DNA of 64,000 nucleotides from an uncultured Poribacteria bacterium (GTDB lineage: Bacteria; Poribacteria; WGA-4E; PCPOR2b): contig OY282444.1 in NCBI GenBank assembly GCA_958296125.1, positions 620,001-684,000 on the forward strand. Direction: 5' to 3'. Below are positions 3,954 through 37,068 of the stretch, one piece after another. The position numbers and the translations under genes were made by a program. The notes under the pieces were generated by a model. The model was not told the DNA's origin and made no database searches. It saw nothing but the letters and a program-made list of their open reading frames with translations. How positions within the stretch are numbered: position 1 is the stretch's first letter; each line of letters starts with the position of its first letter.

Positions 3954-5741
3954 ATGAGCAAATTGACCGATCATATCTTTTTTGTTGAAGACACATGCAG
4001 CGTTTATGGAGTAACAGCAAACGATAAAACACTGCTGATTGACTGCGGGACATCCCCGGCAAAACTTGAGACCAACGGCGTTCAACAGGTCGATCAGGTG
4101 TTACTGACCCATTTTCATCGGGATACCTGTTCTGCTGCAGCCTACTGGAAAAGGCGCGGTGCACAGATCGTTTTTCCGTTTGCGGAGAAACGTTTCGTTG
4201 AGGAGGCTGATCTTCTCAAGGCATCCTACGATATTTATGACAACTACGCCTCCTACTACCCCTGCTTTGGTCCCTTGGAAGATCTTGCTCCGGACCAGTA
4301 CGCCTACGATTACGAAAGCTTGACATGGGAGGGGATTCGTTTCGATGTGGTCCCTCTGCCAGGCCACACCTTCGGCTCGGTGGGCTACCTTTTCGAGTTA
4401 GATGGACAGCGGATACTTGCCTGTGGTGACCTGATGTCGGGCGGCGGGAAAATTCGGGACTATTTCTGGAGTCAGTGGACCTATATGGACTTCAAAGGGC
4501 ATATCAATCATATAGAGAGTCTGAAGACCGCTGCGGCACTCAATGTAGATCTAATTCTGCCGGGGCACGGCGCACCATTTGAACCGACCGCGGAGGCGTT
4601 TGCCGAACTACGATCGGCGTTGGAGGAACTGTATGAACTTTTCCATGCCCACCCCTACGAATACTATCGCCCCGAATTTCGTCAAATCACGCCGCACGTC
4701 TACGAGGTCACGAACTCCGGTGCCAACACCTATATTATCCGGGACGATGAGGGGCACGCGCTTTTTATCGATTGTGGCTACACCTCCAACGCTGCCATCA
4801 GTGCCAACCCTCACCGTTATATCGACAATCTGTCGCCTTATCTCGAAACGGAGTTGGGAATCCACACCGTTGAATGGTTTCTGCCAACCCACTATCATGA
4901 CGACCACCTTGCTGGTTACCCGATGTTGCAAACACGCTACGGGACGCGGGTTGTATCGTCACCAGAGCTCAAGGATATCCTAGAGCACCCAGAAAATTAC
5001 GACATGCCTTGTGGGGTGCCGCACGGAATGAAGGTCGATCACGTTGTTGAACGGGGAGAGGCTTTCCAGTGGCGCGGGATTGAATTTTTCGTTGAGCAGC
5101 ATCCTGGACAGACCTTTTATCATCATCTCATCTGGTTCACGGTCGATGGACAGAAATTCCTAAGTGTGGGGGATAACATCTCTGGGCTTACATTTAGTGA
5201 ACAGAGGGACTTTATTCACTCCTTTATTCCCAAGAATCGGACCCCGGTTTCGAGTTACCGCGATATGCCCCAACAGATTCTCGATTCCGAGCCAGATCAG
5301 ATTTTTACCGGTCATGGGGGTTGTATCCCATTTGATCGGGCGAAAGCAGAGCGGTGGGTTGATTGGATGGACCGGTGGACGGATCTCTTTACGCAGATTA
5401 TTGACCAACCGCACCCCAATATAGGGATGGATCCACGTTGGGTGGAGTTTTATCCTTACAAGATTCGCATCCAGCCGGGAGGAACAGTAACGTTCAAGGT
5501 CACTATCACCAATCATGAATCAGAAGCGCGCGAGTGCACCCTTCGCTTCCGATCTGTTGATGGTGTGCAGCTCTCTCCGACAACGATAGATCTCCATGCC
5601 CCTGGAGGCACCAATACCCCCTGTCAGGTGGAAGCAACCTTCCCAGAGAAGTTTACCACCCACGCGCTTCCCATCGTGGTGGATGTCACTTGGAACGGGG
5701 CACATCTCGGTGAAATTGCTGAGGCTATTGCTTACTGGTAG
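3954..5741 (+). CDS. Tandem double metallo-beta-lactamase-fold hydrolase
   Basis: A 595-residue protein with two consecutive metallo-beta-lactamase-fold domains and a C-terminal beta-sandwich-like tail (about 500-595, beginning PGGTVTFKVTITN). Domain 1 shows THFHRDT (52-58), GH at 137-138, GD at 158-159 and PGHG at 203-206. Domain 2 shows THYHDDH (312-318), PGQT at 384-387, GD at 406-407 and TGHGG at 452-456. Domain 1 therefore lacks the second histidine of HxHxDH, which is Thr58, and domain 2 has Gln386 where the GH histidine is expected. Single-domain relatives include glyoxalase II-like and alkylsulfatase-like hydrolases; the double form may arise from duplication. The substrate is unknown. 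Confidence 0.8.
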   Translation: MSKLTDHIFFVEDTCSVYGVTANDKTLLIDCGTSPAKLETNGVQQVDQVLLTHFHRDTCSAAAYWKRRGAQIVFPFAEKRFVEEADLLKASYDIYDNYASYYPCFGPLEDLAPDQYAYDYESLTWEGIRFDVVPLPGHTFGSVGYLFELDGQRILACGDLMSGGGKIRDYFWSQWTYMDFKGHINHIESLKTAAALNVDLILPGHGAPFEPTAEAFAELRSALEELYELFHAHPYEYYRPEFRQITPHVYEVTNSGANTYIIRDDEGHALFIDCGYTSNAAISANPHRYIDNLSPYLETELGIHTVEWFLPTHYHDDHLAGYPMLQTRYGTRVVSSPELKDILEHPENYDMPCGVPHGMKVDHVVERGEAFQWRGIEFFVEQHPGQTFYHHLIWFTVDGQKFLSVGDNISGLTFSEQRDFIHSFIPKNRTPVSSYRDMPQQILDSEPDQIFTGHGGCIPFDRAKAERWVDWMDRWTDLFTQIIDQPHPNIGMDPRWVEFYPYKIRIQPGGTVTFKVTITNHESEARECTLRFRSVDGVQLSPTTIDLHAPGGTNTPCQVEATFPEKFTTHALPIVVDVTWNGAHLGEIAEAIAYW

Positions 5742-32847: not shown

Positions 32848-33792
32848 TCAAAATTTAACAGCAAAGGAGTTATATTCTCCGCTATGAGGCCGCGCTTCGA
32901 CTTTGACATCCTCGACTTTAGAGGCGGGAGGTCCCTTCCACAAGATGCTCACAAGCGCATCCAGCGTCGCTTTATCCCCCTCGGCGACAACCTCCACTTT
33001 ACCGTTGGGCAAGTTCTTCGCATAACCGTGAACCCCAAGTTTCAGAGCGTTTTGTCGGGTGAAATGACGGAATCCAACCCCCTGGACTTTACCGCTGATC
33101 AGAATATAGCGTTGCATTTTTTGGTTCACCTCAATTGTAACTTTCACCGATGTGCCGAGTGGTGGGAGCACCTCTGGGTTCTTTTTGTAAGGGCTCTCCT
33201 CGGAAGGAATTGGACTTTGAAATAAGGCACTGCCATCGATATAGTTCAGGGCGATGATGTCGTTTCCGACGAATGCTTGGGGTATCGTTGCATCCTGGTC
33301 CTCGCTGTCAAGGTCGGGAATCTCACGAGATCCGGAGAAGATCCATGCGACGTGCTGCATCGGTTTTTTGGTTCGCGTGTTGTAGAGGAGGTCTTCAGCG
33401 CGGACCCTTTTGGTCTCGCTGTTCACGCTCCATTCGACGAACACTAGGACACTGGTCCCTGTCGCGCCCATCATCTCATCTTTCTCTTCGTTGTACATAG
33501 GCGGGACACCCCTTTTGAGACCGAGTTTGAGCATTGCGTCGTAGATTTCCTCTGCGGAACTATTGACGACGATAATACTTTCGTATTCTTTGCCCCTTCG
33601 TCCACAGAGCAGGTATTCCACAGCCCCCTGTAGATGCTCGTCATAGGTGCCAAGGGCTTTGGAGATTTCTCCGGTTAGCACAATCTTCTGTTCGTTCTCC
33701 AGAATTTGGATGGCTTCTTCCCCTTGGCTGACAGCAATCCAGACGAAACTAACGGCGATGATACAGGAAATGCGTCGAAACCTGCATAGCAT
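32848..33792 (-). CDS. Secreted YdjY-domain protein fused to acylphosphatase
   Basis: A 314-residue fusion. An N-terminal signal segment ([17 protein letters not shown]) precedes a YdjY-like domain (about 40-215: [33 protein letters not shown]). The C-terminal 90 residues are a complete acylphosphatase: [14 protein letters not shown] (catalytic Arg) and [19 protein letters not shown] (catalytic Asn). Acylphosphatases hydrolyse acyl-phosphates and are normally small cytoplasmic proteins, so an exported fused form is unusual. GGGGGG lies before the ATG. It probably shares a transcript with the HisN-like gene. Confidence 0.75.
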
Positions 33793-33943
33793 TCGTTTTA
33801 CCCCCTTGTTGATATGTGGAAATTATAACACATAAATATTATGTATAAGTTAAAATTCTGTGAACTTTTGGAATGAGCGGTTAGAAGCTTAAATATTGTA
33901 GAGAAAAAGCAGAGGCTATCGGGACTTGACAGAATCTGCCTTG

Positions 33944-35395
33944 TTATATTCCATTTAGGCTATATTGGTGCGGTGCTTCTTGAATACGTTTGACAAGGTA
34001 TTGCCATGTCCATTTGCTAACCTCGCTTAGGTCTGCAAGTACACCGTCTTTCATGTATCCTTTTCGTTTATTAACTCTACGTAACTCTAGTAGTGTCATA
34101 CGATTACTTTTTTCAAGGTTGCAGGGTTTACATAGCAATGCACGGTTGTTTATATGGTGTTGGCCATGGTCATCTGTGCCACTTTTCGGGTTGATATGAT
34201 CAAGTTCAAGATAGCGTGGATCAGGGGCTTTGAAATTGCAACCCCAACAGTAGGGGCCAAATTGGTTTATGAGCGTTTTATGTATTTCCGCGCGTGTCAT
34301 TTGAAATTCCTCGGTGATTAGAAATACAGATGGTAGATTGGCTGCTGCTAGGGTTGGGTTATCGGTGCGAACTGGCGGTTCTGTTCTATAGTGCATTTCG
34401 TATGGCTGCATTTGTTTGTCAAGCCATGCTTTGTCTGTTGTGTATTTTTCAAATCGCTTTCGTTCCGCTTTGGATATGTCTGCAAGTCGTGTGATAATGT
34501 GGTAACGTGCGTCGGAGCGTCTGTCAATGCCTATCCAACGTCGGTTCAGTTTTTTGGCAGCGATGAGGGTTGTTGCACAACCACAGAATGGGTCAAGAAC
34601 AATATCACCAGGATTACTACTTGCTTTAATAATACGTTTGTAGAGTTTAAGTGGTTTTTGATCTGGTGAACCTGTGCGTTCTTTTGCCATATTGTTTATT
34701 GTTGGTATTCTCCAAACATCGTGCATTAGCTTTCCCTTCTCGTTTGGCCCGTACCGCGGATCGCCGTAGCTATCAGACGCTTTTACCCAGTTACTCTCTG
34801 GTGAGTATGGTTCGCGCATATCATCCCAATTAAAAGGTGCTGCTTTGCTTTTAGCATAGAAGAAGATTGTATCATGTTTACGACCAAGGAATTTTCTTGA
34901 GGTTGATGCAACGTTGTAATAATGCCATATGATCTCATTCCGAAAGTTGTCCTTTCCAAAGATAGCATCTATTGCCATTCGGATATAAGCATTTGCAGTG
35001 TGGTCGCAGTGGAGATAGATTGACCCTGTATCCTTAAGAATACGGTGCATTTCAAGGAGCCTAACACTCAGGAAGCACAAAAAGGCAGCAGTATCCTCAC
35101 CTTGTACGAATTTTGTAGATTCTATGACTTGAAAGAGCTCAGGGTGTCCATCTTGGATAGTTTCGAGCCATTTTGGGTGGACTTCGTTCCATTGCCATTG
35201 GTCAGGGAGTAGACCTATGTTTCCCCATTTCCAACTGTCTACGTAAAAACCTGCGGTGCCGCTGCGGTTTCTCTTCGTATTGAATGGTGGATCTGTTGCA
35301 ATTAGGTCAATGCTATTACTATTAATTCCACGCAAAACTTCGAGATTGTCAAGTTCATATAGTGTGTTTGCTATGTCTTGTGTTATGGGAAACAC
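33944..35395 (-). CDS. DNA methyltransferase-HNH endonuclease fusion
   Basis: A 483-residue fusion of a beta-class DNA methyltransferase and an HNH nuclease. The methyltransferase spans about 1-310, with the catalytic motif DPPF at 35-38 and the SAM motif DIVLDPFCGCATTLIAA at 264-280. The HNH domain spans about 378-435: Cys383-x2-Cys386, LELDHINPKSG (His400), HHINNRALL and Cys422-x2-Cys425 with Asn431. Cleavage and protection would reside in one chain. GTG 35395 is the first in-frame start but overlaps AGGAGG; that sequence is spaced 8 bases from ATA at 35386-35384, so translation may start there or a start codon has been lost. The region is AT-richer than its neighbours, suggesting transfer. 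Confidence 0.8.
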   Translation of the reverse strand: MFPITQDIANTLYELDNLEVLRGINSNSIDLIATDPPFNTKRNRSGTAGFYVDSWKWGNIGLLPDQWQWNEVHPKWLETIQDGHPELFQVIESTKFVQGEDTAAFLCFLSVRLLEMHRILKDTGSIYLHCDHTANAYIRMAIDAIFGKDNFRNEIIWHYYNVASTSRKFLGRKHDTIFFYAKSKAAPFNWDDMREPYSPESNWVKASDSYGDPRYGPNEKGKLMHDVWRIPTINNMAKERTGSPDQKPLKLYKRIIKASSNPGDIVLDPFCGCATTLIAAKKLNRRWIGIDRRSDARYHIITRLADISKAERKRFEKYTTDKAWLDKQMQPYEMHYRTEPPVRTDNPTLAAANLPSVFLITEEFQMTRAEIHKTLINQFGPYCWGCNFKAPDPRYLELDHINPKSGTDDHGQHHINNRALLCKPCNLEKSNRMTLLELRRVNKRKGYMKDGVLADLSEVSKWTWQYLVKRIQEAPHQYSLNGI

Positions 35396-35529
35396 CTCCT
35401 AATGAAAGCCCATAGTATCCCTTTGTTCCTCCTATGATTATCCTTGAAAGCAGCTTCTGAGATGTACAATAGTGCGTATTTCCGCTCGTAGTAGTGATGA
35501 AAATCGAACCATGCCCGCTTGAGTAATGA

Positions 35530-35842
35530 TCAAAAATCCTCTATGGTGTTGGTCATGAGTGCCGTTCCATCAGGTTTTACAAAACCCTTGAGAAACTTGA
35601 GGATTCCTCTGCCGGATAAGTCTGTAGCGACACGAGCAACGACTTTACCACCGCACCGCGTTCAATCGCACCAAGAACAGCAGCTTTCTTTGTGCGGTGT
35701 ATAGAAAGATGATAGAAAGATGCTTGGAGGTGTTTTTCTTGACTCGTTTCTTACGAGGTTTGCCGCATTTATAGTGGTCAATATAGAATTGATACTCCGC
35801 CGCCCTTTTGACACTATCAACAGCGCAGCTTGCTTCCATCAT
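35530..35842 (-). pseudogene. IS1595-type transposase relic
   Basis: Reading the minus strand across frames gives IS1595-like segments: YIDHYKCGKPRKKRVKKNTS, then KKAAVLGAIERG, and after a frameshift GKVVARVATDLSGRGILKF, LKGFVKPDGTALMTN, ending at a TGA at 35530-35532. The frameshift coincides with a direct duplication, GCGGTGCGGTG, near 35655. The N-terminal part is only loosely preserved. The transposase is dead; the element lies between the low-GC methyltransferase-HNH gene and the DegT gene, consistent with past mobility of this segment. Confidence 0.7.
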
Positions 35843-37068
35843 GCCGATCCAGCTAGCCCATGTGCCGCTTTATTGATTGCCTTAGCGATGTCCCGAATGT
35901 CATCCTTGCTCATGTGCTCGTGGATGCCACGGACAGCAACCGTTCTCAAGCCTTCGACCGCGCCGGGCACCAGTTCGGGCCCGTAATGGTAGTCACGGCT
36001 GACATACGGACTGTTAAACGGGAACTGGCTATCGCCGTAGGTGCGTCCCTTTGTCAAGAAGTCGCCACGCATATAGATTGGATCCTTGATGTAATGGGCA
36101 CTCATGGAGATACCTTCGGCGGAGACAGCTTGACAAAATTCGTCGGGGTCGTGCCCGGTAACGTGGAAGATATAGTTCCACCAAGAGATCTCGCGGTCGG
36201 CTGGCAGTGGGACAACCTCAACGCCGGGGGCATCAGCAATCAGTTCGGTCAGTACCCTTCCGAGCGCAATTCGCCGCTCGACGACATCGCGTAGTTTTTC
36301 AAGCTGTGCCAGACCAACAGCCCCTTGCATCTCTGTCATGCGGTAGTTAGGGGCGAGGAAGGCGTGGTCACGGTCTCCCATGTATTGATAGTCCCACCCT
36401 TTGTCGGAAAAGAGTTTCAGACGGATATAGGTTTCCTGATCGTTGGTCAAAATCATCCCGCCATCCCCTGTAGTCATGTGCTTCGACTGCTGGAAGCTGA
36501 AGCAGCCCATCTGCCCAAATGTCCCGGCGTAACGTCCTTTGTACTTCGTTGCGTGGGTTTGGCAGCAGTCCTCAATTAGGATGACGTTATGCTTTTCGGC
36601 AATTTTTACGACTTCGTCAATGTCGCACGGGTGACCAAAAAGATGTACCAAAATAATGGCGCGGGTGCGGTCGGTAATGTTCGCCTCAATGGATTCGGGG
36701 AGCATGTTCAAGGTCTTGGGATCTACATCGGCAAAGATGGGCACGGCGTTCTGCATTAAGATCGGCATAACGCTGCCGGGGTCAGTAATCGGCGCGGTGA
36801 TAATTTCATCGCCGGGGTTGGGATTGACAACACCAACCGCTGTGTGGATAGCAGCGGTCCCGCTCGTTGAGGCCTGTGCGTACTGCGTACCGTAAAATGC
36901 GGCGAATTCCTTTTCCAATTCTTTGACGAACCTCCCACTTTTGACAAAAAGGGTTTGACTACGCACCGCCTGAAGCAGAAGTTCCTCTTCACGTTTACCG
37001 AAAGGGGTGCGTTCCGGAAAGGGCTCGGTTCGCACCTTTGACCCACCGTGGATGGCGAGTTTCTCCAT
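35839..37068 (-). CDS. DegT/DnrJ/EryC1/StrS-family aminotransferase
   Basis: A 409-residue PLP enzyme of the DegT/StrS family. The PLP-phosphate contact is ASTSGTAAIHTA, Asp167 in LIEDCCQTHATK pairs with the cofactor, and Lys196 in SFQQSKHMTTGDGGM forms the Schiff base. Most members aminate keto-sugars or bind them as regulators. AAGGAG precedes the ATG. The gene follows the BMC aldehyde dehydrogenase in the direction of transcription with a 50-base gap, and so is likely the last gene of this BMC operon. A role in generating the BMC aldehyde from an amino alcohol or amino acid is speculation. Confidence 0.87.
   Translation of the reverse strand: MEKLAIHGGSKVRTEPFPERTPFGKREEELLLQAVRSQTLFVKSGRFVKELEKEFAAFYGTQYAQASTSGTAAIHTAVGVVNPNPGDEIITAPITDPGSVMPILMQNAVPIFADVDPKTLNMLPESIEANITDRTRAIILVHLFGHPCDIDEVVKIAEKHNVILIEDCCQTHATKYKGRYAGTFGQMGCFSFQQSKHMTTGDGGMILTNDQETYIRLKLFSDKGWDYQYMGDRDHAFLAPNYRMTEMQGAVGLAQLEKLRDVVERRIALGRVLTELIADAPGVEVVPLPADREISWWNYIFHVTGHDPDEFCQAVSAEGISMSAHYIKDPIYMRGDFLTKGRTYGDSQFPFNSPYVSRDYHYGPELVPGAVEGLRTVAVRGIHEHMSKDDIRDIAKAINKAAHGLAGSA

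What the first reader, a model, noticed from the sequence alone, without database searches (positions are those of the whole stretch)
33944..35395. DNA methyltransferase and HNH nuclease fused in one protein
A beta-class methyltransferase with DPPF and DPFCG is followed in the same chain by an HNH nuclease with two Cys-x2-Cys pairs. A single-gene restriction-modification or DNA-marking system is implied, with no separate specificity subunit seen. The AT-rich composition and adjacent IS1595 relic point to transfer.
Basis: partly seen in the sequence, partly recalled or inferred. Interest (0 to 1): 0.6.

Follow-up and report, generated by a model that had tools for sequence, protein, structure and literature searches.

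The report
Transposon-borne one-gene restriction-modification enzyme
One gene encodes a DNA-marking enzyme and a DNA-cutting enzyme in a single chain, and its relatives swap their target-reading parts and travel as the only cargo of small transposons, which would make it a self-contained, mobile bacterial immune gene.

Summary
Window 33944-35395 (minus strand) is one open frame of 483 aa: a beta-class N6/N4 methyltransferase (PF01555), then a catalytic-type HNH nuclease (PF01844). It is no isolated oddity: the genome (Poribacteria-like) carries eight such fusions, relatives many more. All catalytic positions (DPPF; D399/H400/N417/N426; four Cys) are invariant in 43 of 43 relatives.

The family is modular. 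Target-recognition segments (TRDs) are exchanged: cores 85-96% identical with TRDs about 27-30% identical, or TRDs 75-89% identical on cores only 42-54% identical. The same chassis carries either HNH or an unrelated Mrr-type PD-(D/E)XK nuclease. This fits a single-chain restriction-modification enzyme (Type IIC-like, but beta-MTase then HNH).

M-HNH genes are also cargo of IS1595-family transposons: four complete elements in two other bacteria's MAGs have terminal repeats, transposase, an M-HNH gene and perfect 8-bp target duplications. In the window the transposase is a decayed remnant ending at the M-HNH start, and the roughly 2-kb insert is absent from congeners. The reviews I read describe no beta-MTase-HNH single-chain enzyme. 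Activity, target and phage restriction are untested; the ancestral ATG start is ATA here.

The parts
33944..35395 (-). M-HNH fusion gene, 483 aa
   Evidence: intact frame, stop at 33944
34511..35311 (-). beta-class N6/N4 MTase domain (residues 29-295): motif IV DPPF (35), TRD about 158-236, motif I DPFCG (268)
   Evidence: top structure RsrI, then MboIIA
34688..34924 (-). target-recognition segment (residues 158-236), hypervariable and exchanged between family members
34100..34249 (-). HNH nuclease domain (residues 383-432): CxxC...DH...N...CxxCN
35395..35693 (-). decayed IS1595-family transposase (C-terminal half; frameshift, 31-residue deletion, in-frame TGA), same strand and directly upstream of the M-HNH gene
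33869..35837 (.). inserted segment (about 1.97 kb) with M-HNH plus transposase relic; homology with congeners stops at 33868 and about 35838
   Evidence: G001, G002, G003, G005, G007
35384..35386 (-). ATA codon (residue 4 of the listed frame) at the position of the ATG start of four relatives (L042-L045)
   Evidence: position counted from the listed GTG start at 35395

Best explanation
The gene encodes a single-chain restriction-modification enzyme. The N-terminal beta-class MTase domain, with its own internal TRD, recognises a specific sequence and methylates a base in it (probably N6-adenine). The C-terminal HNH domain, brought to DNA by the same TRD, cleaves or nicks DNA whose site is unmethylated, so host DNA is protected and foreign DNA is attacked. 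Because one TRD sets both activities, exchanging the TRD changes both at once, which lets the family diversify. Genes of this family spread as the sole cargo of IS1595-family transposons; the window copy most likely arrived that way, its transposase has since decayed, and it now sits as an immobile gene. Shown: the fusion, catalytic residues, TRD exchange, nuclease-type exchange, transposon cargo status of relatives, and insertion and transfer in this genome. Inferred: the enzymatic activities, coupling of cleavage to methylation state, the target, and the role in defence.
For: Both domains score above Pfam cut-offs. MTase fold and sequence match RsrI and MboIIA. HNH catalytic and zinc residues are invariant in 43/43; the HNH profile hits Cas9/IscB HNH and the fold hits Gme HNH nickase and EcoKMcrA. 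TRD exchange: window vs L045 core 85%, TRD 30%; L043 vs L045 core 96%, TRD 28%; L049 (HNH) vs L230 (PD-type) TRD 80%, core 42%; L191 (HNH) vs L184 (PD-type) TRD 76%, core 47%. The same chassis carries HNH (41 proteins) or a Mrr-like PD-(D/E)XK domain (84), as expected if cutting is the selected function. No adjacent R, M or S gene. Cargo status: L363, L364, L369 and L016 each have TIRs, an IS1595 transposase, an M-HNH gene and a perfect 8-bp TSD; IS1595 Pfam hits; genome-wide co-location. Transfer: 83-84% identity to G021/G018 against 66-70% for two neighbouring genes, and absence from the site in congeners.
Against: No enzymatic, methylome or phage data; the target is unknown. In this copy the ancestral ATG is ATA and the start is uncertain, so it may be weakly expressed. 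Most transposon-borne copies examined (L364, L369, L016, L367, L254) have frameshifted M-HNH frames, either decay or MAG errors. AlphaFold confidence for the HNH part is modest (pLDDT about 66), and Foldseek E-values for it are 0.05 or higher. No TIR of the window element was recognised.
Confidence: 0.7

Rival explanations
1. The M-HNH protein serves the transposon rather than defence: its HNH cleaves empty or donor sites, with self-protection by methylation, to promote retention or homing of the IS1595 element, as IscB/TnpB nucleases do for IS200/IS605 elements.
For: M-HNH is cargo between IS1595 TIRs. The HNH weakly resembles IscB (NCBIfam E 4.6e-6; IscB and Cas9 HNH).
Against: Many plain IS1595 copies carry no M-HNH (for example L236 and L238, with perfect TSDs), so it is not needed for transposition. 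TSD sequences differ between elements, so there is no fixed homing site. No Rfam RNA in the window. Most Poribacterial M-HNH copies are not next to an IS1595 element.
Confidence: 0.12
2. The window copy is a remnant that only methylates, or is unexpressed: an orphan MTase with a passive HNH tail.
For: ATG to ATA start change in this copy; the transposase partner has decayed; frameshifts are common in relatives.
Against: The whole 483-aa frame is intact and all HNH catalytic residues are kept. HNH is nearly as conserved as the MTase core in the 20-member subfamily (0.51 against 0.3-0.4 bits).
Confidence: 0.12
3. The HNH domain is only a structural zinc or DNA-binding module that helps the MTase.
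For: The CxxC pairs are structural in HNH folds (PMC4081073); the AlphaFold model of this part is of modest confidence; a non-restriction HNH-fold protein, DotN, appears among the fold hits.
Against: D, H and N catalytic positions invariant in 43/43. On the same chassis the domain is replaced by a different nuclease class, not by other DNA-binding domains.
Confidence: 0.06

Closest known systems
Type IIC / IIG restriction-modification enzymes (MmeI, BcgI, BtgZI), as reviewed in PMC4081073
   Same: Endonuclease and methyltransferase in one chain, both steered by one specificity module; specificity changes move both activities together.
   Different: The review gives an N-terminal PD-(D/E)XK plus gamma-class MTase for most, and BtgZI as the differing case (alpha-class MTase then C-terminal PD-(D/E)XK variant). 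Here it is a beta-class MTase first, then HNH, with the TRD inside the MTase.
MboII R-M system (M.MboIIA beta-class MTase; MboII listed among HNH REases in PMC4081073)
   Same: MboIIA and RsrI are the closest solved MTases; a beta MTase paired with an HNH nuclease.
   Different: MboII uses separate proteins; here both are in one chain.
TRD movement in Helicobacter pylori Type I/III MTases (PMC3983042)
   Same: TRDs move between non-orthologous MTase genes by recombination at conserved motifs.
   Different: Here TRDs move between fused enzymes that carry unrelated nuclease classes (HNH and PD-(D/E)XK).
IS1595-family insertion sequences (that some carry passenger genes is recalled from memory)
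   Same: DDE transposase PF12762 with zinc ribbon PF12760, TIRs, 8-bp TSD.
   Different: The passenger is a single-gene M-HNH; L191 is a transposase-free unit with only M-HNH between the TIRs and a 7/8 TSD.

Membership tests
Type IIC (combined R-M in one polypeptide) | MTase and endonuclease domains in one chain | tested here: met
Type IIC (combined R-M in one polypeptide) | Both activities shown biochemically, at one recognition sequence | not testable with these tools
   no wet-lab or methylome data
Type IIG (strict: gamma-class MTase, AdoMet-stimulated cleavage) | gamma-class (NPPY) MTase domain | tested here: not met
   beta order: IV (DPPF 35) before I (DPFCG 268); best relatives RsrI/MboIIA
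Type IIG (strict: gamma-class MTase, AdoMet-stimulated cleavage) | N-terminal PD-(D/E)XK nuclease (the usual build) | tested here: not met
   C-terminal HNH instead
beta-class N6/N4 amino-methyltransferase | PF01555, DPPx catalytic motif, FxGxx SAM motif, TRD between IV and I | tested here: met
   the SAM loop reads FCGCA rather than FxGxG
HNH (beta-beta-alpha-metal) nuclease superfamily | general-base His and metal-binding D/N residues, CxxC pairs | tested here: met
   D399, H400, N417, N426 and four Cys invariant 43/43; third residue N, as in Cas9/IscB
HNH (beta-beta-alpha-metal) nuclease superfamily | nuclease activity | not testable with these tools
   -
IS1595-family transposon cargo (relatives) | PF12762 transposase, TIRs and 8-bp TSD enclosing M-HNH | tested here: met
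   L363, L364, L369, L016: perfect 8-bp TSDs
IS1595-family transposon cargo (window copy) | intact transposase and both TIRs | tested here: not met
   decayed transposase only; no TIR found

The most novel reading that the evidence does not exclude
A new class of mobile immune gene: single-gene beta-MTase-HNH restriction-modification units that are cargo of IS1595-family transposons, including transposase-free units mobilised in trans, and that re-target themselves by swapping TRDs across non-homologous nuclease classes, spread among bacteria of different phyla.
Probability: 0.5. Interest if true: 0.72.

Novelty: new variant of a known kind. Interest (0 to 1): 0.62.

Why it matters
R-M systems usually need two or more genes moving together. 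A one-gene enzyme with its own TRD, carried on a 2.4-3-kb simple transposon, would be about the smallest self-contained mobile immune unit, and a way for R-M specificity to spread and diversify at once. The modular series (same chassis; many TRDs; HNH or PD-(D/E)XK) gives natural chimeras for testing how a TRD couples methylation to cleavage, and could supply new one-chain restriction enzymes. Sponge metagenomes are reported as enriched in R-M systems (PMC5099237); if this genome is a sponge symbiont, as Poribacteria generally are, this gives one concrete vehicle.

Tried and rejected
A GGAAATTATA motif at about 33823 looked like a terminal repeat of the element, but it lies inside the stretch homologous to the congeners (up to 33868), so it was dropped. 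Poribacterial TIR motif scans of the window found nothing. A blind search for flanking inverted repeats over all family members was at background except L191, L074 and two weak hits; TIRs were recognised only through the IS1595 loci. Fisher test of TIR proximity, HNH versus PD loci in Poribacteria, was not significant (5/38 vs 1/32, p = 0.21); the entries L056 and L172 counted there as PD look like frameshifted HNH genes, so that count is conservative, but I do not lean on it. Viral contigs hold few M-HNH (L071, L072, L074, again as L255-L257) but hundreds of relatives, mostly without HNH. No phage or plasmid record covers 80% of the protein. Guide-RNA association: no Rfam match in the window. 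Relatives of the loci L016 and L010 could not be used as search centres. Paper searches for an MTase-HNH single-chain enzyme or an IS1595 M-HNH passenger found none; the library lacks most subscription papers.

Full report
Observation. The gene at window 33944-35395 (minus strand) is one uninterrupted frame of 483 codons. Pfam places N6_N4_Mtase at residues 29-295 (E 1.6e-53) and HNH at 383-432 (E 6.3e-07), both above the curated cut-offs. Motif order IV (DPPF, 35) before I (DPFCG, 268) is beta-class. The nearest solved MTases are MboIIA and RsrI by sequence and RsrI by fold (AlphaFold pLDDT 75). Neighbouring genes (acylphosphatase-domain protein, inositol monophosphatase, DegT aminotransferase) are unrelated to R-M.

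HNH is of the catalytic type. In an alignment of 43 relatives D399, H400, N417, N426 and the four cysteines are invariant. A profile of the domain hits the HNH of Cas9 and IscB with the catalytic D-H and N aligned. A model of the domain alone (pLDDT 66) has Gme HNH nicking endonuclease (Foldseek probability 0.98) and EcoKMcrA (0.94) among its top hits, although E-values are only 0.05-0.1. The third residue is N, not H, as in Cas9-type HNH.

The family. The window genome (G000, 5.16 Mb, one contig) holds eight M-HNH genes, counting this one, and at least one M-Mrr gene. 47 of 58 order-level relatives have matches at E <= 1e-30. One relative, G045, contains a contig of the same length (5,011,778) as the record titled 'uncultured Poribacteria bacterium', hence the phylum assignment. 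C-termini of the 142 collected proteins fall into a Mrr-like PD-(D/E)XK cluster (84) and an HNH cluster (41), plus small others; Mrr_cat was identified by Pfam in L005 and L014.

Target-recognition exchange. In the 20-member subfamily of the window protein the mean column entropy is 0.39 and 0.31 bits in the two MTase parts, 0.51 in HNH and 2.01 in the TRD. Pairs such as L043/L045 (core 96%, nuclease 81%, TRD 28%) and window/L045 (core 85%, TRD 30%) show replaced TRDs. Pairs such as L049/L230, L191/L184 and L204/L152 share TRDs at 75-80% while the cores are 42-49% identical and the nucleases are of different classes. Sliding identity puts the switch points in the conserved MTase parts. The H. 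pylori literature describes such TRD movement between non-orthologous Type III genes (PMC3983042). Finding it between enzymes with unrelated nucleases argues that the TRD, not the nuclease, sets specificity for both activities; that step is inference.

IS1595 cargo. Transposase genes lie next to M-HNH or M-family genes in L074, L016, L010, L056/L254 and L252. In two MAGs (G058, gammaproteobacterial, and G059, Rhodobacteraceae, by the titles of the records of L016 and L010) five M-HNH loci lie within about 1 kb of an IS1595 transposase; with 9 and 16 IS1595 matches in genomes of about 3.1-3.4 Mb, chance would give roughly 0.1-0.2 (my estimate). Element ends were found for them: L363 (3029 bp, TSD CAAATAAT), L364 (2377 bp, TSD TATATTTT), L369 (2890 bp, TSD TTCAACAG) and L016 (2679 bp, TSD CTAGCAAA), all with 8/8 matching duplications. 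L367 (the L010 locus) has 43-nt TIRs but no TSD. In Poribacteria, L254 has TIRs around a transposase plus a frameshifted M-HNH, and L191 has TIRs around an M-HNH gene alone with a 7/8 TSD, a candidate for mobilisation in trans. Most Poribacterial M-HNH genes, however, have no recognisable element today.

Arrival in this genome. Homology with congeners G001-G003 stops at 33868 on one side and, for G001, G002, G003 and G005, at 35838-35855 on the other; G007 has only 393 bp between the two flanking genes. G002 and G003 have other DNA there, so this is a variable site. The protein is 83-84% identical to those of G021 and G018 in another family, whereas two neighbouring genes are 66-70% identical to the same genomes. 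Both facts support horizontal acquisition.

Mechanism and limits. I take the protein to be a single-chain R-M enzyme. Shown: domain fusion, conserved active sites, modular TRD, interchangeable nuclease, transposon cargo in relatives, acquisition here. Inferred: methylation, cleavage of unmethylated DNA, N6-adenine as the target base (from RsrI/MboIIA similarity) and defence as the role. The copy may be weakly expressed: the ATG of relatives is ATA here.

Comparison. The Type II review PMC4081073 describes combined enzymes mostly as PD-(D/E)XK plus gamma MTase, with BtgZI (alpha MTase, C-terminal PD variant) as a known departure, and lists HNH enzymes such as MboII as separate REases. A beta MTase followed by HNH is therefore a different build of a known kind. 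By strict definition it is not a Type IIG enzyme (gamma-class MTase: tested, not met). Whether REBASE or ISfinder already list such proteins could not be checked.

Noticed in passing
window 35384-35386: The ATG start codon of four relatives (L042-L045) is ATA here; the GTG start listed overlaps the AGGAGG ribosome-binding site.
   Followed up: yes
L073-L150 (viral contigs), L005, L014: Large family of beta-MTase plus Mrr-like PD-(D/E)XK fusions, abundant in IMG/VR contigs, sharing the MTase chassis and TRDs with the M-HNH family.
   Followed up: partly
L074 2912-5712: Nested elements: an M-HNH gene bounded by its own 23-nt inverted repeats (4106-4128 and 5468-5490) sits inside another M-HNH-like gene that follows an IS1595 transposase, within a larger TIR pair.
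   Followed up: partly
L364, L369, L016, L367, L254: Most transposon-borne M-HNH genes have broken frames; decay, phase variation or MAG errors not distinguished.
   Followed up: no
L039 7868-11070; L014 5872-10851: Tandem M-HNH pair in the window genome, and three consecutive MTase-fusion genes in a Poribacteria record.
   Followed up: no
L346 1235-4475; L347 1238-6450: The site between the acylphosphatase-domain gene and the DegT gene holds different DNA in congeners G003 and G002 (a variable site).
   Followed up: no
window 32848-33792: Protein with a long unassigned N-terminal part followed by an acylphosphatase domain (PF00708 at residues 230-311).
   Followed up: no
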